From Candidatus Epulonipiscium sp. (GTDB lineage Bacteria > Bacillota > Clostridia > Lachnospirales > JAAYNZ01): 39,453 bases of DNA. Made by a program: the position numbers and the translations under genes. Of the stretch, positions 27,421 through 38,771 are shown piece by piece. Position 1 is the first letter of the stretch, and each line of letters starts with the position of its first letter. Below the pieces are notes generated by a model, which was not told where the DNA came from, ran no database searches, and saw only the letters and a list, made by a program, of their open reading frames with translations. The stretch is from NCBI GenBank assembly GCA_012524135.1, contig JAAYSE010000018.1, positions 1 through 39,453 of the forward strand. The letters are read 5' to 3'.

Positions 27421-27491
27421 TTACAAAGAAAGAATTTTTCTTGAAAGTTAAAATAGAATTTATAATATAGAGTTGTATTTTTTTATAATGG

Positions 27492-27526
27492 AAGGAGGAA
27501 GAGCGTTTTACGCTCAAATAATAATG
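27492..27526 (+). promoter_or_regulatory. Ribosome site separated from its start by a hairpin
   Basis: AAGGAGG (27492-27498) lies 25 bases before ATG 27524, but GAGCGT (27501-27506) and ACGCTC (27510-27515) form a hairpin between them; when folded, the gap is about 10 bases. No nearer ribosome site exists. Confidence 0.55.
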
Positions 27527-28117
27527 ACGGAAGAAGTGAGCTTTAAAAAATTAAAAGAAATTTTTTTCATTTTTCTTAAATTGGGAGCGTTTACTTTTGG
27601 AGGGGGATATGCCATGATTCCTCTTATTGAAGAAGAAGTAGTGCATAAGAGAAAATGGATTAAAGAAGAAGAAGTTATTGATGTATTTGCTGTAGCTGAG
27701 TCCATTCCAGGAGCGATAGCCATTAACTCATCAACATTTATTGGATATAAAATTGCAGGCCGAAAAGGAGCTATAGCAGCGAATATAGGAGTTATCCTTC
27801 CTTCAGTGTTTATTATTACATTGATTGCAAGTGTATTTGGAAGGTTTCAAGATAATCCTATTATACAAGCTGCTTTATTAGGAGTTCGTTCTTGTGTTGT
27901 AGCCCTCATTGGAGTAGCAGCTTTTTCTTTATCAAAAAAGGCTCTTCGAGATAAATTAACAGTTCTTCTTTGGCTAATTACCGTTCTTTGTATTTTAATT
28001 ATGGATCTACATCCTATTTTTATGATTATTTCAGGAGGTCTTATTGGTCTTTTAGTGATGAAAATCATGCCAGATAAAGTAGAAGAAATCATAAAAGGAA
28101 GAGGAGATAATGAATGA
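27524..28117 (+). CDS. Chromate transporter, N-terminal half protein (CHR family)
   Basis: 197 residues from ATG 27524 (MTEEVSFKKLKEIF). CHR signature FGGGYAMIPLIEEE near 24-37, AESIPGAIAINSSTFIGYK and several membrane helices (about 15-30, 80-105, 110-130, 145-165, 168-185). Full ChrA has two such halves; here they are two adjacent genes, as in other Firmicutes pairs, and probably assemble as a heterodimer. Substrate is chromate or sulfate by family; not proven. Upstream in-frame ATGs at 27473 and 27488 have no ribosome site. The stop overlaps the next ATG in ATGA. Confidence 0.88.
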   Translation: MTEEVSFKKLKEIFFIFLKLGAFTFGGGYAMIPLIEEEVVHKRKWIKEEEVIDVFAVAESIPGAIAINSSTFIGYKIAGRKGAIAANIGVILPSVFIITLIASVFGRFQDNPIIQAALLGVRSCVVALIGVAAFSLSKKALRDKLTVLLWLITVLCILIMDLHPIFMIISGGLIGLLVMKIMPDKVEEIIKGRGDNE

Positions 28118-28689
28118 AAATATACCTTCAGTTAATTTGCACATTTTTTAAACTAGGATTATTTAGTTTTGGAGGGGGATATGCCATGATTCCCCTAATT
28201 GAAAAAGAAATAGAAAGTCATGGATGGATGACAGCTACCGAGTTTTCTAATATTATTGCTATTGCAGAAATGACGCCAGGGCCTATTGCAGTAAATTCAG
28301 CTACTTTTGTAGGCTATAAGACAGCGGGAATTTTAGGGGGAATTATTGCTACTATAGGAGTAGCATTACCTTCTTTGTTATTAATTTTATTGGTATCTCA
28401 GATTTTTTTCAAATATCAAGATCATCCCGTTAATAAGATGATTTTTTATGGTATTCGTCCTGTTATTGTAGGATTAATTACAACAGCTACTGTTTTTGTT
28501 GGGAAAACAGCATTTTTTCATTGGGAAGTTTCTTTAGCAGGAATAAAAGATCTTTTTGGATTTTTAAATTTTAGTAGTATTGCGATTTGTATTATTTCTT
28601 TTATTGGAATGCTTCGTTTTAAAATACATCCTATTTTAATGATTGGTATTTCAGCGGTACTCGGTGTAGTTTCTATGTATCTTTTCTAA
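28114..28689 (+). CDS. Chromate transporter, second half protein (CHR family)
   Basis: 191 residues, beginning in ATGA overlap with the first half gene, which implies translational coupling. The same CHR signature is present (FGGGYAMIPLIEKE near 19-32, EMTPGPIAVNSATFVGYK), with helices spread over the length and a hydrophobic C-terminus. It complements the other half to form the antiparallel two-domain transporter. A terminator follows. Confidence 0.88.
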   Translation: MKIYLQLICTFFKLGLFSFGGGYAMIPLIEKEIESHGWMTATEFSNIIAIAEMTPGPIAVNSATFVGYKTAGILGGIIATIGVALPSLLLILLVSQIFFKYQDHPVNKMIFYGIRPVIVGLITTATVFVGKTAFFHWEVSLAGIKDLFGFLNFSSIAICIISFIGMLRFKIHPILMIGISAVLGVVSMYLF

Positions 28690-28721: not shown

Positions 28722-28748
28722 AGTGTTGGATCAGTCCAACACTTTTTT
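28722..28748 (+). terminator. Terminator of the chromate transporter genes
   Basis: AGTGTTGGA (28722-28730) pairs with TCCAACACT (28735-28743), loop TCAG, then T to 28748. Confidence 0.9.
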
Positions 28749-28760
28749 ATTTAAAAATGA

Positions 28761-28789
28761 TTGACAAAAGAATAAAAAACCATTATACT
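28761..28789 (+). promoter_or_regulatory. Promoter of the fab-acc operon
   Basis: TTGACA (28761-28766), 17-base spacer, TATACT (28784-28789). The start point falls near 28796 inside the FabT-like sites. Confidence 0.85.
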
Positions 28790-28817
28790 TTGATTATCAA
28801 ACTATTTGAAAGTCAAA
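28789..28817 (+). promoter_or_regulatory. Two tandem FabT-like operators
   Basis: TTTGATTATCAAA (28789-28801) and TTTGAAAGTCAAA (28805-28817) share the TTTGA-N3-TCAAA form of FabT boxes of Streptococcus-type bacteria, centres 16 bases apart. They cover the end of the -10 and the start point, so binding should repress. A FabT-like gene is in the operon. Confidence 0.75.
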
Positions 28818-28852: not shown

Positions 28853-29923
28853 ATGTTTCTATTACCTCTACAAATTGGTTCTTTAACGGCTTCTGTTCCT
28901 ATTGTTCAAGGAGGAATGGGAGTAGGTGTTTCTCTATCTAATTTAGCTTCTGCAGTAGCAAATGCAGGTGGAATCGGTGTTATTTCTGGCACTCATATTG
29001 GATTTAGAGAACCTGATTTTTATCAAAATCCTACAAAGGCGAATATACGTGCTTTAAAAAAAGAAATTCAAAAAGCAAAAATGCAAAGTCCACAAGGGGT
29101 TATAGGAATTAATTTTTTAACTGCTTTTAATCATTATGCAGATTTAGTCAAAGTAGCAGTAGAAGAAAAAATAGATATTATTTTTTCAGGTGCTGGACTT
29201 CCGGTAGATTTACCTGCTTTTGTAAAAGGAAGTGCAACAAAGATTGTTCCTATTATTTCTTCAGCTAAAGCAGCAGTAGTGATTACAAAATTATGGCAAC
29301 GTCGATATGACTATCTTCCGGATGCTCTTGTGGTAGAAGGCCCTGAGGCAGGAGGGCATTTGGGATTTACTTTTGATCAATTAAGAAAAAAACAGGAAAA
29401 TACCAATCTTAGTGTGATTTTACAAGAAGTAAAAAAAGCGATACATCCTTTCGAAATAGAGGGAAAAAAGATTCCTTTAATTGCAGCAGGAGGTATTTTT
29501 ACAGGAGAAGATATTCAAAAATATTTAAAATTAGGGGCCTCTGGAGTACAAATGGGAACTCGATTTATTGCGACAGAAGAATGTGATGCTCCCTTTTCTT
29601 TTAAAGAGCAATATATCAATGTTTCTTCGAACAATCTTAAGTTAATCCAAAGTCCTGTAGGACTACCAGGGCGGGTTTTATATACCCCCTTTATTAAAAA
29701 AATGGAGAATGAAAAAGTTCCTGTACAACGTTGTCTTGGATGTCTGAAAACTTGTCAGCCCCAAGAAACTCCTTATTGTATTTCTGAAGCTTTGATTCAA
29801 GCAGCGAGAGGGAATGTGATGAAAGGATTATTTTTTGCTGGTAGTAGTGTTTGTCGTATAAAAAAGATGATGACAGTCAAAGAATTAATCAAGGAGTTAG
29901 TAGATTCTCTAAATCAATCATAG
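28853..29923 (+). CDS. FabX-like FMN flavoprotein with Cys cluster (NMO/FabK superfamily)
   Basis: 356 residues of the nitronate monooxygenase/FabK TIM-barrel family: PIVQGGMGVG at the FMN site, VVEGPEAGGHLG with His169 as the likely catalytic base, AAGGIFTGED and GVQMGTRF. Unlike plain FabK, it carries Cys294, Cys297, Cys301 and Cys309 (CLGCLKTCQ and PYC) and an AGSSVCRIKK end. A [4Fe-4S]-binding Cys set at this place is the hallmark of FabX of Helicobacter, a dehydrogenase/isomerase that makes the cis double bond of unsaturated fatty acids. It is the first gene of the operon, where streptococci have the isomerase FabM; the FabX role is inferred, a nitronate monooxygenase being the alternative. 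AGGAGAGG is upstream. Confidence 0.7.
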   Translation: MFLLPLQIGSLTASVPIVQGGMGVGVSLSNLASAVANAGGIGVISGTHIGFREPDFYQNPTKANIRALKKEIQKAKMQSPQGVIGINFLTAFNHYADLVKVAVEEKIDIIFSGAGLPVDLPAFVKGSATKIVPIISSAKAAVVITKLWQRRYDYLPDALVVEGPEAGGHLGFTFDQLRKKQENTNLSVILQEVKKAIHPFEIEGKKIPLIAAGGIFTGEDIQKYLKLGASGVQMGTRFIATEECDAPFSFKEQYINVSSNNLKLIQSPVGLPGRVLYTPFIKKMENEKVPVQRCLGCLKTCQPQETPYCISEALIQAARGNVMKGLFFAGSSVCRIKKMMTVKELIKELVDSLNQS

Positions 29924-29972: not shown

Positions 29973-30443
29973 ATGGAAAAAGCAATACAAGTCTTAAATG
30001 GACTTTTAGTAGAACTTTTCAATGATATTTTAAATATTGAGCAAACAGCATTAAAAGATGGAAAATTTAATGATCTTTCTATTACAGAAATTCATACCAT
30101 TGAAGCCATTGGTTTGTACCAACCTCGAACAATGTCAGAAGTAGCGAATGATTTAGATATTACCGTAGGTACATTAACGACTGCCATTCGAAAATTAGTT
30201 AAAAAAGGTTATGTAGAAAGAAAAAGAGGAGAAGAAGATCGCCGTATTGTTCAAATACAGTTAACAAGAAAAGGGAAACTAGCCTATCGTATTCATGAAA
30301 AGTTTCATACCGATATGATTAAATATATGGTACAGGATTTACAGATACAAGATCAACAATTACTGATCCATTCTTTAGAACAGTTACATCAATTTTTAAA
30401 AGAAAAATATCACTTGGATAAAGAAGGCAAAGGAGGGAAGTGA
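29973..30443 (+). CDS. fabT: FabT-type MarR-family fatty-acid regulator
   Basis: 156 residues with a winged helix-turn-helix: SITEIHTIEAIG, TMSEVANDLDITVGTLTTAIRKLVKKGYVERKRGEEDRR and a C-terminal dimer helix. The position between the first reductase and fabH equals that of fabT in streptococcal fab clusters; FabT uses long-chain acyl-ACP as co-repressor and binds TTTGA-N3-TCAAA palindromes like those upstream at 28789. AAGGGAGGG precedes the ATG. The stop TGA overlaps the next ATG (TGATG). Confidence 0.85.
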   Translation: MEKAIQVLNGLLVELFNDILNIEQTALKDGKFNDLSITEIHTIEAIGLYQPRTMSEVANDLDITVGTLTTAIRKLVKKGYVERKRGEEDRRIVQIQLTRKGKLAYRIHEKFHTDMIKYMVQDLQIQDQQLLIHSLEQLHQFLKEKYHLDKEGKGGK

Positions 30444-31460: not shown

Positions 31461-31688
31461 ATGATATTTGAAAAAGTAAAAAAAGTAGTAGTAGAACAAT
31501 TAGGGGTAGAGGAAAAAGAATTGATGATGGAAACTTCTTTTCAAGATGATTTGGATGCGGATTCTCTAGATTTATTTGAAATTGTTATGTCCTTGGAAGA
31601 AGAATTTGAAATTGAAATATCCAATGATGATGTAGAAAAGCTTAAAACAATTGGAGATGCTGTTTCTTATATTGAAGCGAATAAATAA
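31461..31688 (+). CDS. acpP: Acyl carrier protein
   Basis: 75 residues, acidic, four-helix. The 4'-phosphopantetheine site is Ser35 in [12 protein letters not shown]. It carries the growing acyl chain among the fab enzymes. Good AGGAGGA ribosome site, 22-26 bases from its neighbours, same operon. Confidence 0.96.
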
Positions 31689-31714: not shown

Positions 31715-32665
31715 ATGTTTCAATCTAACATTTGCCAGCTACTCAATATTAAATATCCTATTTTGCAAGGAGGGATGGCTTGGGTTGCGAATCATTCCCT
31801 TGCTTCTGCTGTTTCTAATGCTGGTGGACTAGGGATTATTGCAGCAGCCAATGCTCCTGTGGAAGTAGTTCGAGAAGAAATACGAAAAACCAAAGAAAAA
31901 ACAGATCGTTCTTTTGGCGTGAATGTTATGTTACTGAGTGAAAATGCAGATGAAGTGGCTCATTTGGTATGTGAAGAAGGAATTAAAATAATCACTACTG
32001 GTGCAGGAAACCCAGGAAAATATATGGAACTTTGGAAAGCCCATGGTATAACTGTTATTCCTGTGGTTCCTTCGGTTGCTTTAGCTAAGCGAATGGAACG
32101 TTATGGAGCGGATGCTCTTATTGTGGAAGGAAATGAAGCAGGAGGGCATATTGGTGAGTTAACAACGATGGCTTTAGTTCCCCAAGTAGCAGATGCCGTA
32201 TCGATTCCTATTATTGCGGCCGGTGGTATAGGAGATGGACGAGGAATGGCTGCTACCTTTATGTTAGGCGCTTCGGGTATACAGATGGGAACTCGATTTT
32301 TAGTAGCAAAAGAATGTGCTATTCATTTAAAATATAAAGAAAAAGTACTTCGTGCTAAAGATATTGATACCGTTGTAACTGGTCGGCCTACCGGTCATCC
32401 TGTGCGAATTTTAAAAAATCCTTTATCTCGTAAATTGTTAAATATGGAAAAAAATCAAGAGCCTGCCAGTGCATTTGAAGAACTAGGAAAAGGTGCTCTT
32501 CGACGAGCCGTGATGGAAGGAGATATGGATAACGGTTCAATTATGGCTGGTCAGATTGCGGGATTAATTAAAAAAGAACAAACCTGCGAAGAAATTATCG
32601 AAGAAATAATGAAAGAAATGAAAATAATAATGCAAGAGGGGTGGCAAAGATGGCAAGGAAAATAG
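31715..32665 (+). CDS. fabK: Enoyl-ACP reductase II
   Basis: 316-residue FMN enzyme that reduces trans-2-enoyl-ACP in the last step of each elongation cycle. PILQGGMAWV at 16-25, His145 in EGNEAGGHIGEL, AAGGIGDGRG and GIQMGTRF are as in streptococcal FabK, which is insensitive to triclosan. It lacks the four-Cys cluster of the first operon gene, so the two paralogues differ in role. Follows acpP as in streptococci. Its last 16 bases overlap fabD. Confidence 0.94.
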   Translation: MFQSNICQLLNIKYPILQGGMAWVANHSLASAVSNAGGLGIIAAANAPVEVVREEIRKTKEKTDRSFGVNVMLLSENADEVAHLVCEEGIKIITTGAGNPGKYMELWKAHGITVIPVVPSVALAKRMERYGADALIVEGNEAGGHIGELTTMALVPQVADAVSIPIIAAGGIGDGRGMAATFMLGASGIQMGTRFLVAKECAIHLKYKEKVLRAKDIDTVVTGRPTGHPVRILKNPLSRKLLNMEKNQEPASAFEELGKGALRRAVMEGDMDNGSIMAGQIAGLIKKEQTCEEIIEEIMKEMKIIMQEGWQRWQGK

Positions 32666-33597
32666 CCTTTTTATTTCCCGGACAAGGAGCTCAATATATA
32701 GGAATGGGAGAAGAGTTTTATCAGCAATACCCAAAATCAAAAGAAATTTTTCATCAAGCGTCAGAAATATTAGGTTATGATTTAGCCACTCTATGTTTTA
32801 AAGGACCCAAAAGTCAATTAGATCAAACAGAGTATACCCAACCTGCCTTACTTACTGTATCCGTAGCTATATTAGAGGTACTGAAAGGTATAGGGATTCA
32901 ACCAGATGTAACAGCAGGTCTTAGTTTAGGAGAATATACAGCCTTAGTATGTAGTGGAGGATTTGATTTTTCTACTGCAGTAGCGCTCGTTCAAAAACGT
33001 GGGAAATATATGCAAGAAGCCGTTCCACAAGGAATAGGAGGAATGGCCGCTGTTTTAGGTTTAGAGGGAATGATCGTACAGGAACTTTGTCAACAAGTAA
33101 AAGATCAAGGATGGGTAGCACCAGCTAATTTTAACTGTCCTGGACAAATTGTAGTAGGTGGAGAAATAAAAGGAGTAAAAGCTCTTTGCAAAGTAGCAAA
33201 AGAAGCAGGAGCAAAAAGAACTATTCTTTTAGATGTTAGTGCTCCTTTTCATACAGCTATGTTGAAACCTGCAGCAGAACAATTAAAAAAAGAGTTAGAA
33301 AAAATAGCTATAGGTACTATTCAAATACCATATATAACAAATACGACGGGAGAATATATTACAGATGCGAGTCAAGTAAAAAGTATATTAGCTAAACAAG
33401 TAATGTCTCCTGTCCTTTGGGAAAAAAGTATACGACGTATGCTCAAAGAAGGAATCAATTGTTTTATAGAAATAGGAGCGGGAAAAGTATTAAGCCGGTT
33501 TGTTAGAAAAATAGATTCTAGTGTTCACATTTTATCCATTGAAAATTTATCCACATTAGAAAAGACAGTAGAAGCTATGGGAGGTAAGATATGCTAA
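32650..33597 (+). CDS. fabD: Malonyl-CoA:ACP transacylase
   Basis: 315 residues from ATG 32650, eight bases after GAGGGG inside fabK; the in-frame GTG 32641 abuts the site. It moves malonyl from CoA to AcpP. FPGQGAQ at 9-15, active-site Ser92 in GLSLGEY and His201 in APFHTAML. C-terminal motif VIEIGAGKVL-like at about 285. Overlaps fabK and fabG, so translation is probably coupled. Confidence 0.96.
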   Translation: MARKIAFLFPGQGAQYIGMGEEFYQQYPKSKEIFHQASEILGYDLATLCFKGPKSQLDQTEYTQPALLTVSVAILEVLKGIGIQPDVTAGLSLGEYTALVCSGGFDFSTAVALVQKRGKYMQEAVPQGIGGMAAVLGLEGMIVQELCQQVKDQGWVAPANFNCPGQIVVGGEIKGVKALCKVAKEAGAKRTILLDVSAPFHTAMLKPAAEQLKKELEKIAIGTIQIPYITNTTGEYITDASQVKSILAKQVMSPVLWEKSIRRMLKEGINCFIEIGAGKVLSRFVRKIDSSVHILSIENLSTLEKTVEAMGGKIC

Positions 33598-34334
33598 CGG
33601 GAAAAGTGGCTTTAGTAACAGGAGCCAGTGGAGGTATTGGAAAATCGATTGCATTAACCTTAGGAAAATCAGGAGCTTTGGTGGCAGTCAATTATTACAA
33701 AGATCAACAAGGAGCAGAATCAGTTGTTAAAGAAATTCAAGCCCAAGGAGGTCAAGCAATTGCATTACAAGGAAATATCAGTTCGTTGAAAGAAGTAACT
33801 ACATTGATGAATACGATTATTGATCAATGGGGACGATTGGATATTTTAGTGAATAATGCAGGAATTACAAAAGATGCGTTATTGATTCGAATGAAGGAAG
33901 AAGATTTTAAAAAAGTACTAGATACCAATTTAACAGGAGTTTTTTATTGTATACAACAAGCAGGTAAAATTATGATGAAACAACGTTCTGGTAAGATTGT
34001 TTCTATTGCTTCTATAGTAGGTGTTACGGGGAATATAGGGCAAGCTAATTATGCAGCAGCTAAGGCAGGATTGATTGGACTTACGAAAACAGCAGCTAAA
34101 GAATTTGCCTTACGTGGAATTACCGTTAATGCAATTGCTCCTGGATTTATTGATACTGCTATGACAAAAGTATTATCGGATAAAATTAAAAAACAGCTTT
34201 TAGAATATATTCCGTTAAGACGCTTTGGAAAACCTCAAGAAGTAGCTTATTTAGTTGAGTTTTTGGTTTCTGAAAAAGCAGATTATATTACAGGTCAAGT
34301 CTTTCATGTAGATGGTGGTATGGTGATGGCATAG
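33591..34334 (+). CDS. fabG: 3-oxoacyl-ACP reductase
   Basis: 247-residue short-chain dehydrogenase, NADPH-dependent, second step of elongation. Rossmann start [10 protein letters not shown] (10-19), NNAG at 88-91, catalytic Ser141, Tyr154 and Lys158 (YAAAK), and [10 protein letters not shown] overlaps the fabD stop region. Normal length. Confidence 0.96.
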
Positions 34335-34348
34335 AAAGGAGAATTTCA

Positions 34349-35587
34349 TTGAAAAAAAGAGTCGTTGTTACAGGAATAGGTACAATTAATCCTTTAGGAA
34401 ATGATGTAATGACTTTTTGGAAAAATACAATTCAAGGAAAATGTGGAATCCAACTTTTAGAAGCCTTTGATACAACAGATTATAAAGTAAAAGTAGCAGG
34501 AGAAGTGAAAGATTTTGATCCACAACAATATATGGATCGTCGATTGGCTAGAAGAATGGATCGTTATAGTCAGCTTGCTATGGGTGCAGCAGTACAAGCG
34601 GTAGAAGATGCAGAGTTCAATATGGATAAAATAGATGCCAATCGTTTTGGTGTAGTAGTAGGATCAGGAATTGGAGGCATCGGAACGATCGAGCACGAAC
34701 ATAAAAGATTATTGGAAAAAGGGCCTCATCGTGTTTCACCTTTACTTATTCCTATGATTATTACGAATATGGCAGCAGGTAATATTGCTATTCGTTTCGG
34801 AGCCAAAGGAATTTGTACCAATGTGGTGACTGCTTGTGCAACGGGTACTCAGAGTATTGGAGAAGCGTATCGCATTCTTCAACATGGAGAAGCAGATATT
34901 ATGATTGCAGGAGGAGCAGAGTCTTCGATTACTCCGATATCCATTGCCGGTTTTACTTCTTTAACAGCACTTAGTACCAATCCGGATCCATATACTGCCT
35001 CACGTCCTTTTGATGCCCATCGAGATGGCTTTGTCATGGGAGAAGGAGCAGGAATTTTGATACTTGAAACTTTAGAACATGCTTTCAATAGAGGAAGTAA
35101 GATCTATGGAGAAATTGTTGGATATGGGGCGACTTGTGATGCGTATCATATGACATCTCCCGCACCTAAAGGAGAGGGAGGAGCTAGATCCATGCAGTTA
35201 GCAATTGAAGAAGCAGGTATTGATATTTATGATATTTCTTATATTAATGCACATGGTACGTCGACACTTTACAATGATGAATTTGAGACTGATGCGATCA
35301 AGACCGTCTTTCAAGAACAGGCGTATAAAATTCCAATTAGCTCTACTAAATCTATGACAGGACATTTATTAGGAGCTGCTGGAGCGGTAGAATCTATTGT
35401 TTGTCTTAAAGCGTTACAAGAAAGTTTTATTCCTCCTACGATTGGATACGAAACTTTAGATCCTGCTTGTGATTTGGATTATGTTCCTAATAAAGGACGT
35501 AAGCAAGAATTATCTTATGCTTTATCGAATTCCTTGGGATTTGGAGGACATAATGGAACATTAGTCTTTAAGAAATGGATAGAATGA
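34349..35587 (+). CDS. fabF: Beta-ketoacyl-ACP synthase II
   Basis: 412 residues starting at TTG, with AAAGGAGA six bases upstream. It condenses malonyl-ACP with acyl-ACP to lengthen the chain, including longer unsaturated chains. Catalytic Cys163 (TACATG), His302 (AHGTS) and His339 ([10 protein letters not shown]). No truncation. Confidence 0.96.
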
Positions 35588-36096: not shown

Positions 36097-36516
36097 ATGA
36101 ATGTTCAAGAAATACAAAAAATTATTCCTCATCGCCCTCCTTTTCTTCTTGTGGATCGAATCATTTCGATAGAAGCAGGGAAAAAAGGGGTTGGATTAAA
36201 AAATCTATCCATTAATGAAGATTTTTTTCAAGGGCATTTTCCTATGGAACCGGTTATGCCAGGTGTATTAATTGTAGAAGCTTTAGCACAAGTAGGAGCT
36301 GTAGTTTTATTAAGTGTGGAGGATTTTAAGGGAAAGACCGCTTATTTTGGAGGTATGAATAAAGTTCGATTTAAGAGAAAGGTTATTCCAGGTGATCAAC
36401 TTCGATTAGAAGTAGAAATTATCAAAATGCGAGGATCTATTGGTATTGGAAAAGGGATAGCTTTTGTGGAAAATGAAAAAGCAGCTGAAGCAGAAATGAC
36501 CTTTGTTATCGGATAA
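36097..36516 (+). CDS. fabZ: 3-hydroxyacyl-ACP dehydratase
   Basis: 139-residue hotdog-fold enzyme that dehydrates 3-hydroxyacyl-ACP. Start [12 protein letters not shown], catalytic His47 in GHFP and Glu61 in VEALAQVG. No separate FabA or FabM in the window, so this dehydratase alone does not explain unsaturated chains. AGGAGG upstream. Between accB and accC, as in streptococci. Confidence 0.95.
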
Positions 36517-36534: not shown

Positions 36535-37869
36535 GTGTTTAAAAAAATTCTCATTGCAAATCGAGGCGAAATTGCTGTACGTATTATTCGAACTTGTAGA
36601 GAAATGGGTATTGAAACAGTAGCTATTTATTCAGAAGCAGATCACAATGCCCTTCATGTACAGATGGCCGATGAAGCGATTTGCGTAGGACCAGCAAAAA
36701 CGATAGATAGTTATTTGAACATAGAAAATATTATCAGTGCTACTGTTTTATCAGGAGCAGAAGCAATTCATCCTGGATTTGGTTTTTTATCAGAAAATAG
36801 TAAGTTCGCTAAAATGTGCCGTGAATGTAATATTATCTTTATTGGACCCAAAGGAGAACATATGGATCAGATGGGAAATAAATCTCAAGCAAGAGAAACG
36901 ATGATAAAAGCAGGGATACCTGTGGTACCAGGTTCGAATGGTGCTATTGAATCAGCAAAAGAAGGATTTCAAATAGCAAAAGAAATAGGATTTCCTGTTA
37001 TGATCAAAGCTTCCTTAGGAGGCGGAGGAAAAGGGATGCGTATTGCTCAAAATGAAAAAGAATTTATGAAAGTCTTTTCTTTAGCACAAAAAGAAGCGCA
37101 AAGTTTCTTTGGAAATTCTACGATGTATGTGGAAAAGTATATTGAAAATCCACGTCATATTGAATTTCAAATTTTAGCAGATCAATACGGAAATGTCATT
37201 CATTTAGGAGAACGAGATTGTTCCATTCAACGACGACATCAAAAGGTAATGGAAGAAACCCCGAGTCCAGTGATGACATCTAATTTGCGTCAGGTTATGG
37301 GAGAAGCAGCGGTTCAAGCAGCGAAGACGATAGGTTACCAAAGCGTAGGTACGATTGAATTTTTATTGGATGCTTCCCAAAAATTTTATTTTATGGAGAT
37401 GAATACAAGAATACAAGTAGAACATCCCATTACAGAGATGGTAACAGGTTTAGATTTAATTGAAGAACAAATTAAAATTGCAGCTGGTTTTCCTCTTTCT
37501 TATAAACAAAAAGATATACATTTTCATGGTCATGCTATTGAATGCCGTATTAATGCAGAAAATCCAGAAAAAAATTTTATGCCTTCTCCTGGAACAATTA
37601 CAGAGCTTTATATTCCAGGAGGTTTAGGAATACGAGTAGACAGCGCTATATATCATGGTTATACAATACCACCTTATTATGACTCTATGATTGCAAAATT
37701 AATTGTTTATGCAGAAGATCGAGAAAAAGCAATTCTGCGAATGAAACGAGCGCTAGGAGAATTTATCATTCAAGGAGTTCATACGAATATTGATTTTCAA
37801 TATGATATTTTACATGATATCAATTTTCAAAAAGGAGAATATGATACTGGATTTATTGAAACGAGGTGA
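36535..37869 (+). CDS. accC: Biotin carboxylase subunit of acetyl-CoA carboxylase
   Basis: 444 residues from GTG with AGGAGGG upstream. ATP-dependent carboxylation of biotin on Acc[15 protein letters not shown] start, [10 protein letters not shown], Gly-rich ATP loop GGGGKGMR, and the catalytic ERDCSIQRR and [10 protein letters not shown] segments. Complete. The last codons overlap the ribosome site of accD. Confidence 0.96.
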
Positions 37870-37874
37870 GTTCT

Positions 37875-38771
37875 ATGTTGGGAGGCTTTTTTAAAAAAAC
37901 TAAATATATTACCATGCCTCAAAAGCCACAAATAGCTCAACCTCCCCGTGCGTCCCTGGATATGCAACAGGACATTCAACCGTGCATTCCAGATGGAATG
38001 TGGCAAAAATGTAAAAAATGTGGGCAGATTTTATATGCTAACGATTTAAAAGAACAATATCAAGTTTGTCCAGATTGTGGATATCATTTTCGTTTATCAG
38101 CTCCCGAACGAATTCAACAAATGATAGATCCAAATACTTTTGAGTCTTGGGGTGAAGATATTCTTTTTAAAAATCCTTTAGAAGATAAAGAATATGAAAA
38201 AAAGGTAAAAAAGCTTCAAGAAAATACAGAGTTAAAAGAAGCTATTTTGATAGGGAAAGGACAGATAGAGGGATATAAAACTGTTTTTGGAGTGATGGAT
38301 AGCCGATTTTTGATGGGGAGTATGGGAACCGTAGTAGGTGAAAAATTGACTCAAGCAATAGAGGAAGGGACTAAACAGAAACTTCCTATTATTTTATTTA
38401 CCGCATCAGGAGGAGCAAGGATGCAAGAAGGAATTTTTTCCTTAATGCAAATGGCTAAAACTTCTGCTGCTTTGGCAAAACATCAGGAAGAAGGTCTTCT
38501 TTCTATCATTGTATTAACCGATCCAACAACAGGAGGGGTTACTGCTAGTTTTGCTATGTTAGGTGATATTATTTTAGCTGAACCAGAAGCATTGATTGGT
38601 TTTGCAGGTCCTAGAGTCATTCGTCAAACCATTGGTCAACAATTACCCGATGGATTTCAAACGGCTGAATGCCTACTTCAACATGGATTTGTAGATCAGA
38701 TTGTACCACGAAAAGAAATGAAAAAAATGATCACAAAGATATTAGCACTTCATCAGGAGGTGCATGTATGA
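37875..38771 (+). CDS. accD: Acetyl-CoA carboxylase carboxyltransferase, beta subunit
   Basis: 298 residues from ATG 37875, five bases after GAGGTGA; GTG 37866 overlaps this site and is less likely. Zinc ribbon with Cys46, Cys49, Cys65 and Cys68 at the N-terminus, then the carboxyltransferase crotonase fold ([30 protein letters not shown]). Makes malonyl-CoA with AccA. Ends in ATGA overlap with accA. Confidence 0.95.

What the first reader, a model, noticed from the sequence alone, without database searches (positions are those of the whole stretch)
28853..29923. FabX-like four-cysteine flavoprotein at the FabM position of a FabT-controlled fatty-acid operon
Seen: the first gene is a FabK/NMO-type flavoprotein with GGHLG (His169) plus Cys294, 297, 301 and 309, while a plain FabK without these cysteines is encoded four genes later. 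Known: FabX of Helicobacter pylori, an NMO-family flavoenzyme with a Cys-bound iron-sulfur cluster, introduces the cis double bond; in streptococcal clusters of this same order the first gene is the isomerase FabM. Inferred: this organism uses an anaerobic FabX-type desaturation-isomerisation step placed under the same FabT control, a route that would solve the missing FabA/FabM in this class.
Basis: partly seen in the sequence, partly recalled or inferred. Interest (0 to 1): 0.78.

Follow-up and report, generated by a model that had tools for sequence, protein, structure and literature searches.

The report
FabT-controlled FabX-type fatty-acid double-bond enzyme
An anaerobic bacterium carries, at the head of its fatty-acid gene cluster and under that cluster's own repressor, a relative of the Helicobacter enzyme FabX that makes fatty acids unsaturated; this gives a concrete gene to test for a step whose enzyme in Clostridia was reported as unknown.

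Summary
By sequence, fold and tree it belongs to the FabX/UfaA branch of the NMO flavoproteins. It is about 40% identical to H. pylori FabX and 38% to the gonococcal UfaA homologue, while those two are only 31.5% identical to each other. The predicted model superposes on FabX at TM 0.90, against 0.74 for FabK. His and all four Cys are invariant in 37 clostridial relatives. FabX residues that contact ACP are largely kept, and FabK lacks them. New here is the regulation: tandem FabT-type palindromes directly follow the -10 box. In 643 kb around relatives, 24 of 29 such palindromes sit in front of FabX-like genes, including eight loci outside any fab cluster. The genome (93% complete) shows no ECH family (no FabM), one FabZ, no membrane desaturase, no cytochrome bd. 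So it is very probably the double-bond-introducing enzyme. Not shown: activity, the cluster itself, and the electron acceptor, since H. pylori FabX needs O2. A redox-neutral isomerase remains possible. The family and its role in anaerobes are already published; only about 63 of 293 class genomes carry it. A new, well-placed member, not a new kind.

The parts
28722..28743 (+). Intrinsic terminator closing the upstream chromate-transporter genes; it separates the fab transcript from them
   Evidence: 9-pair stem AGTGTTGGA/TCCAACACT followed by TTTTTATTTA; one found against 1.0 expected by chance, so position is the main argument
28761..28789 (+). Sigma-A promoter TTGACA-17 nt-TATACT (11 of 12)
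   Evidence: sequence
28789..28817 (+). Tandem FabT-type operators TTTGATTATCAAA (28789-28801) and TTTGAAAGTCAAA (28805-28817), 16 bp apart, abutting the -10 box
   Evidence: (the only tandem site in the genome); same tandem spacing in front of relatives
28853..29923 (+). FabX/UfaA-type four-cysteine FMN flavoprotein, proposed cis-double-bond-introducing enzyme (His169; Cys294/297/301/309)
29973..30443 (+). FabT-like MarR regulator
   Evidence: NF050133 FabT 176 bits, cut-off 200, next model 48 bits
30440..31432 (+). FabH, 3-ketoacyl-ACP synthase III
31461..31688 (+). Acyl carrier protein
   Evidence: (sequence, DSLD motif) and synteny
31715..32665 (+). FabK, ordinary enoyl-ACP reductase without the four cysteines
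   Evidence: TIGR03151 510 bits, cut-off 453
32641..33597 (+). FabD, malonyl transferase (from sequence and order)
   Evidence: synteny
33591..34334 (+). FabG, ketoacyl reductase (from sequence and order)
   Evidence: synteny
34349..35587 (+). FabF, the 3-ketoacyl-ACP synthase II of the cluster
   Evidence: TIGR03150 638 bits
35575..36078 (+). AccB
   Evidence: synteny
36097..36516 (+). FabZ, the only FabA/FabZ-family dehydratase found in the genome
   Evidence: TIGR01750 181 bits; FabA model far below its cut-off
36535..38771 (+). AccC (36535-37869) and AccD (37866-38771)
   Evidence: synteny

Best explanation
The gene encodes a FabX/UfaA-type flavo-iron-sulfur enzyme that feeds the unsaturated branch of type II fatty-acid synthesis. 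Shown by sequence, fold and context: family membership, the four-Cys cluster-domain motif, the catalytic His, most of the FabX-specific ACP-contact residues, and a FabT-type operator on its promoter. Inferred from H. pylori FabX: a medium-chain saturated acyl-ACP (about C10) docks on helix 7, FMN and His169 remove hydrogens at C2/C3, the trans-2-enoyl product isomerises to cis-3 in a bent tunnel, and FabF elongates it to the usual unsaturated acids. Reduced FMN is drained through the [4Fe-4S] cluster to an acceptor that cannot normally be oxygen here and is unidentified. FabT-like repression would throttle this step together with the rest of the operon when long-chain acyl-ACP is in excess.
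For: Best solved relative is HpFabX (230 bits, against 108 for FabK) with all four Cys aligned. Identity is about 40% to HpFabX and 38% to the gonococcal UfaA homologue, while those two are 31.5% identical to each other. Model pLDDT is 94.4; TM 0.90 to FabX, 0.74 to FabK. The four-Cys clade is supported 100/99 and both characterised lineages fall inside it. FabX ACP contacts K152 and K159 and the basic position 164 are kept, and FabK lacks 152 and 164. The gene sits in at least six different arrangements inside or beside fab clusters. FabT-type boxes stand in front of linked and unlinked copies. FabM, a second FabZ and a membrane desaturase were not found. Of 63 FabX-carrying class genomes 61 have FabZ, against 157 of 230 others, Fisher p = 4e-7. 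C. [quoted passage not shown]
Against: HpFabX requires O2 (PMC8626469). This genome shows no cytochrome bd and no ETF alpha, so a dehydrogenase needs some other acceptor; one rubredoxin is present but nothing links it to this gene. R160 of the FabX-ACP interface is not conserved. About 7% of the genome is missing, so a hidden fabM cannot be fully excluded. No lipid data exist for this organism. Most class genomes with FabZ lack FabX, so its role is not universal.
Confidence: 0.66

Rival explanations
1. Same pathway, different chemistry: in strict anaerobes the enzyme is a redox-neutral trans-2/cis-3-enoyl-ACP isomerase (a flavoprotein FabM) that draws trans-2-decenoyl-ACP from FabZ; reduced FMN or His169 acts as acid/base and the cluster holds the redox state or closes the tunnel.
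For: It removes the missing-acceptor problem (no cyt bd, no ETF alpha). It occupies FabM's place next to FabT and FabH. In F. nucleatum, fabX overexpression raises the MIC of a FabK inhibitor from 0.4 to 3.1 (PMC11091888), which fits action on the enoyl-ACP that piles up. From memory, Bloch's C. butyricum labelling placed octanoate and decanoate in different double-bond isomers, which fits a step after elongation and dehydration better than direct dehydrogenation of decanoyl-ACP.
Against: HpFabX is a proven dehydrogenase/isomerase and the redox parts (FMN site, four Cys) are invariant here. The labelling work was on another species and is cited from memory. The F. nucleatum effect could equally be weak reductase activity.
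Confidence: 0.2
2. A second enoyl-ACP reductase or back-up FabK that uses a low-potential donor through its iron-sulfur cluster.
For: NMO family and ACP-contact residues; the F. nucleatum overexpression effect.
Against: A full FabK lies in the same operon. The NADPH-binding part of FabK is replaced by the Cys domain in FabX (PMC8626469). The double-bond step would then have no enzyme in this genome.
Confidence: 0.08
3. A true nitronate monooxygenase or general flavoprotein oxidase that lies by the fab genes by chance.
For: Pfam names the domain nitronate monooxygenase.
Against: True NMO structures match at TM 0.73 or less (query-normalised) and lower identity. The Cys domain, the repeated linkage to fab clusters and the FabT-type boxes on unlinked copies do not fit.
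Confidence: 0.02

Closest known systems
FabX, H. pylori HP0773 (PDB 7E1Q/9LT5; PMC8626469)
   Same: FMN TIM barrel, catalytic His, C-terminal four-Cys domain, Ser149/Glu175/Asn99/Gln240 equivalents, Lys at 152 and 159, basic residue at 164
   Different: About 40% identical; cluster spacing Cx2Cx3Cx7C instead of Cx3Cx3Cx11C; R160 replaced by Leu; encoded in a FabT-type fab operon beside a FabK (H. pylori has no FabK); organism shows no cytochrome bd, so O2 is an unlikely acceptor
UfaA, N. gonorrhoeae NGO1024 (cited in PMC11300592 and PMC4549310; original paper not held)
   Same: Four Cys and His; reported as needed for anaerobic unsaturated fatty-acid synthesis
   Different: About 38% identical to the gonococcal sequence read here; UfaA is induced anaerobically (PMC3032703); longer Cys spacing
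FabX homologue of F. nucleatum, C4N14_08920 (PMC11091888)
   Same: Four-Cys FabX in an anaerobe that also uses FabK
   Different: A F. vincentii copy read here is 39% identical to the window protein but 56% to HpFabX
FabM, trans-2/cis-3-decenoyl-ACP isomerase of Streptococcus
   Same: Same place in a FabT-FabH-ACP-FabK cluster and same pathway branch
   Different: Crotonase fold; no such family found in this genome
FabK, enoyl-ACP reductase (same operon)
   Same: Same flavoprotein superfamily and His
   Different: About 33% identical, no four-Cys domain, no helix-7 extension, opposite reaction

Membership tests
FabX/UfaA | Falls with characterised FabX and UfaA, apart from FabK | tested here: met
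   Tree with four-Cys clade 100/99 holding HpFabX and the gonococcal UfaA homologue; inner order weakly supported
FabX/UfaA | Four cluster Cys at the positions of C300/C304/C308/C320 | tested here: met
   C294/C297/C301/C309 align in all 36 relatives compared; spacing is shorter than in H. pylori
FabX/UfaA | Catalytic His182 equivalent | tested here: met
   His169, 36 of 36
FabX/UfaA | FabX-specific ACP-contact residues | tested here: met
   K152 equivalent K/R 36/36, position 159 K/R 32/36, position 164 basic 33/36, S149 36/36; R160 not conserved
FabX/UfaA | FabX fold with C-terminal cluster subdomain | tested here: met
   AF2 pLDDT 94.4; TM 0.90 to FabX, 0.74 to FabK
FabX/UfaA | Bound [4Fe-4S] cluster and FMN | not testable with these tools
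   Needs purified protein; ligands predicted only
[quoted passage not shown]
   No assay
FabK | Passes the FabK equivalog model TIGR03151 (453 bits) | tested here: not met
   143 bits; the FabK of the operon scores 510
FabM | Crotonase (ECH_1) fold | tested here: not met
   NMO TIM barrel; no ECH_1 match in the genome
FabT regulon | FabT-type palindrome at the promoter and a FabT-like regulator in the operon | tested here: met
   binding itself not tested, and the regulator is just under the curated cut-off

The most novel reading that the evidence does not exclude
In strictly anaerobic Clostridia the FabX-type enzyme works without oxygen and without net redox change, as a flavin- and [4Fe-4S]-dependent trans-2/cis-3-enoyl-ACP isomerase (or passes electrons to a dedicated anaerobic carrier), a chemistry not shown for any FabX, and is the long-missing clostridial double-bond enzyme under FabT control.
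Probability: 0.25. Interest if true: 0.75.

Novelty: new member of a known kind. Interest (0 to 1): 0.52.

Why it matters
The anaerobic route to unsaturated fatty acids was first proposed from work on a Clostridium, yet the clostridial enzyme was still reported unknown in 2009 (PMC2700279). A FabX-type gene that repeatedly sits in fab clusters, and that carries FabT-type operators even when it has moved away, turns this into a directly testable gene. It also asks how a FabX that in H. pylori discards electrons to O2 can work in strict anaerobes. It bears on the claim that FabX is rare in healthy gut bacteria, since a Parabacteroides distasonis copy is 49% identical to the window protein.

Tried and rejected
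FabK paralogue: rejected (143 of 453 bits, Cys domain, tree). True nitronate monooxygenase: rejected on fold and context. FabM or crotonase relative: rejected (no ECH_1 in the genome). FabA/FabN alternative: only one FabA/FabZ-family protein, in the operon. Oxygen-dependent membrane desaturase: none found. The related-loci scan of genome contigs used a single protein and gave only two loci, so few named relatives came from it; named references were instead found among plasmid records that include misfiled chromosomes. Isabella & Clark 2011 and Bi 2016 were not held. A search for CAC3580 found nothing. Single perfect boxes elsewhere in the genome lie by cell-surface sugar/glycosyltransferase genes and a RelA/SpoT-type gene, so no wider FabT regulon was claimed. 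In FabX-negative fab clusters, the unlabelled neighbours tested by Pfam were AccA, PlsX or unrelated, with no FabM. ECH_1 across the class: 22 of 63 FabX-carrying genomes have no ECH_1 protein over 28 bits; the others may have butyrate-pathway crotonases, so this is only weak evidence.

Full report
OBSERVATION. The frame 28853-29923 (+) is intact, 356 aa, with GGHLG (His169) and cysteines 294, 297, 301 and 309 exactly as stated. [quoted passage not shown] The FabK four genes on passes the FabK equivalog model (510 bits, cut-off 453); the first gene does not (143 bits). The MarR protein's best model is FabT (176 bits, just under its 200 cut-off; next 48).

FAMILY. Among solved structures the best match is H. 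pylori FabX (230 bits, E 2.5e-67), then FabK (108 bits); the four cysteines fall on C300, C304, C308 and C320, the ligands of the FabX [4Fe-4S] cluster (PMC8626469). Spacing differs: Cx2Cx3Cx7C here, Cx3Cx3Cx11C in H. pylori. On one alignment the window protein is 40.4% identical to HpFabX and 37.9% to the gonococcal UfaA homologue, which are 31.5% identical to each other; it is 32.7% identical to its own FabK. The gonococcal sequence was taken as NGO1024 because it is the only matching place in that record; the accession itself was not matched. An AlphaFold2 model (pLDDT 94.4) superposes on FabX at TM 0.90 and on FabK at 0.74. In a tree drawn with FabK outside, all four-Cys long-form proteins form one clade (100/99) that includes HpFabX and the UfaA homologue; the window protein lies in a six-row group beside the group that holds both, but the inner forks are weakly supported.

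ACTIVE SITE AND ACP SURFACE. Over 36 relatives, compared with 13 FabK proteins: the equivalents of N99, E175, H182 and Q240 are shared by both families; the four Cys are 36/36 and absent in FabK; S149 is 36/36; K152 is K/R 36/36 (mostly A/G in FabK); position 159 is K/R in 32/36; position 164, whose mutation reduces FabX activity about 80-fold, is basic in 33/36 while FabK has a gap there; R160 is not conserved. In the 37-row alignment His169 and the four Cys are invariant. The FabX-type ACP dock is therefore largely kept; cofactor content is predicted, not shown.

CONTEXT ELSEWHERE. About 63 of 293 sampled genomes of the class have such a protein (mostly 43-60% identity, with a clear gap to FabK near 100 bits; the count includes two divergent, one partial and one split copy). 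In the neighbourhoods read, it lies inside or next to fab clusters in many arrangements: at the head beside FabT, divergent from FabT or FabH, between FabK and FabD, between FabG and FabF, after AccD, between FabH and FabF. In many other genomes it stands alone. FabX-carrying genomes nearly always have FabZ (61 of 63, against 157 of 230, Fisher p = 4e-7). These genomes are related, so this p-value is not free of phylogeny.

REGULATION. Upstream of the gene are a terminator (28722-28743), a near-consensus promoter (28761-28789) and two palindromes TTTGATTATCAAA and TTTGAAAGTCAAA 16 bp apart abutting the -10 box. The pair is unique in the genome. In 643 kb around relatives, 29 TTTGANNNTCAAA sites occur, and 24 of them (in 15 loci) lie within 170 bp upstream (or just inside the start) of a FabX-like gene; four others are upstream of FabH, ACP or FabZ. 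Eight of the FabX loci with a box are away from any fab cluster (L059, L085, L087, L090, L091, L092, L097, L101), and a ninth is the named strict anaerobe Acetoanaerobium noterae DSL2 (L105: two boxes, no other fab genes in 19 kb; anoxic growth, PMC11253131). In FabX-negative clusters that keep FabT, boxes stand near the heads of the acc or fab genes instead. This regulon evidence does not depend on gene order. FabT as the binder is inferred.

GENOME COMPLEMENT. In the 93%-complete genome: no ECH_1 protein (so no FabM), one FabA/FabZ protein that is a FabZ by model, no fatty-acid desaturase, no cytochrome bd, no ETF alpha, one rubredoxin. [quoted passage not shown] that paper does not mention a nitropropane dioxygenase or flavoprotein.

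MECHANISM. The likeliest reading is FabX chemistry: dehydrogenation at C2/C3 of a medium-chain acyl-ACP, then trans-2 to cis-3 isomerisation in a bent tunnel, then elongation by FabF. HpFabX disposes of electrons to O2 (PMC8626469). The gonococcal relative is reported to act anaerobically with an unknown acceptor (PMC11300592). In the window organism O2 is implausible, and the acceptor is the main open point. The chief rival is a redox-neutral isomerase acting on FabZ's product. The partial rescue of FabK inhibition by fabX overexpression in F. nucleatum (PMC11091888) fits either an isomerase or a weak reductase.

NOVELTY. FabX homologues were said to occur in 31 genera of 7 phyla, mostly anaerobes (PMC8626469). 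From memory, Isabella and Clark (2011) proposed UfaA for facultative and obligate anaerobes lacking FabA; that paper was not held. Verdict: a well-supported new member of a known family that makes an old question testable; the anaerobic chemistry is unproven.

Noticed in passing
L042-L047 (six class genomes); L109:4049-4936; L111:4007-4942: A shorter (about 320 aa) four-Cys NMO group with CxxCxxxCx4C, lacking the helix-7 ACP extension; never in a fab cluster in the six clostridial neighbourhoods, but next to fabK on the Ilyobacter polytropus replicon. Possibly a second, unassigned Fe-S flavoprotein family.
   Followed up: partly
L110:1791-4979 (Pseudanabaena galeata plasmid pPg_03): A FabX-type gene between psbA and heme oxygenase, reminiscent of a low-oxygen cassette; it could supply unsaturated fatty acids when O2-dependent desaturases fail.
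   Followed up: no
L112:2941-4149 (Caballeronia grimmiae replicon p1): A UfaA-type gene about 2.6 kb downstream of narI of a respiratory nitrate reductase, which fits a role in anaerobic growth.
   Followed up: no
L106:4010-5080 (Parabacteroides distasonis): A FabX-type protein 49% identical to the window protein in a gut commensal; relevant to the claim that FabX inhibitors would spare gut bacteria.
   Followed up: no
L041:9932-10999: An uncultured Eubacteriaceae locus with FabX between FabH and FabF and no FabK within 14.5 kb.
   Followed up: no
literature, PMC3032703: In N. gonorrhoeae, NGO1024 (ufaA) and an ETF-ubiquinone oxidoreductase (NGO1396) are both induced anaerobically: a possible electron route there; the window genome shows no ETF alpha.
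   Followed up: partly
G175:C66:20174-21249: A FabX-like gene split into two frames overlapping by about 13 bases: frameshift, pseudogene or assembly error.
   Followed up: no
window 27473-28689: A pair of half-size chromate-transporter (ChrA) genes just upstream, closed by a terminator; unrelated to the fab transcript.
   Followed up: no
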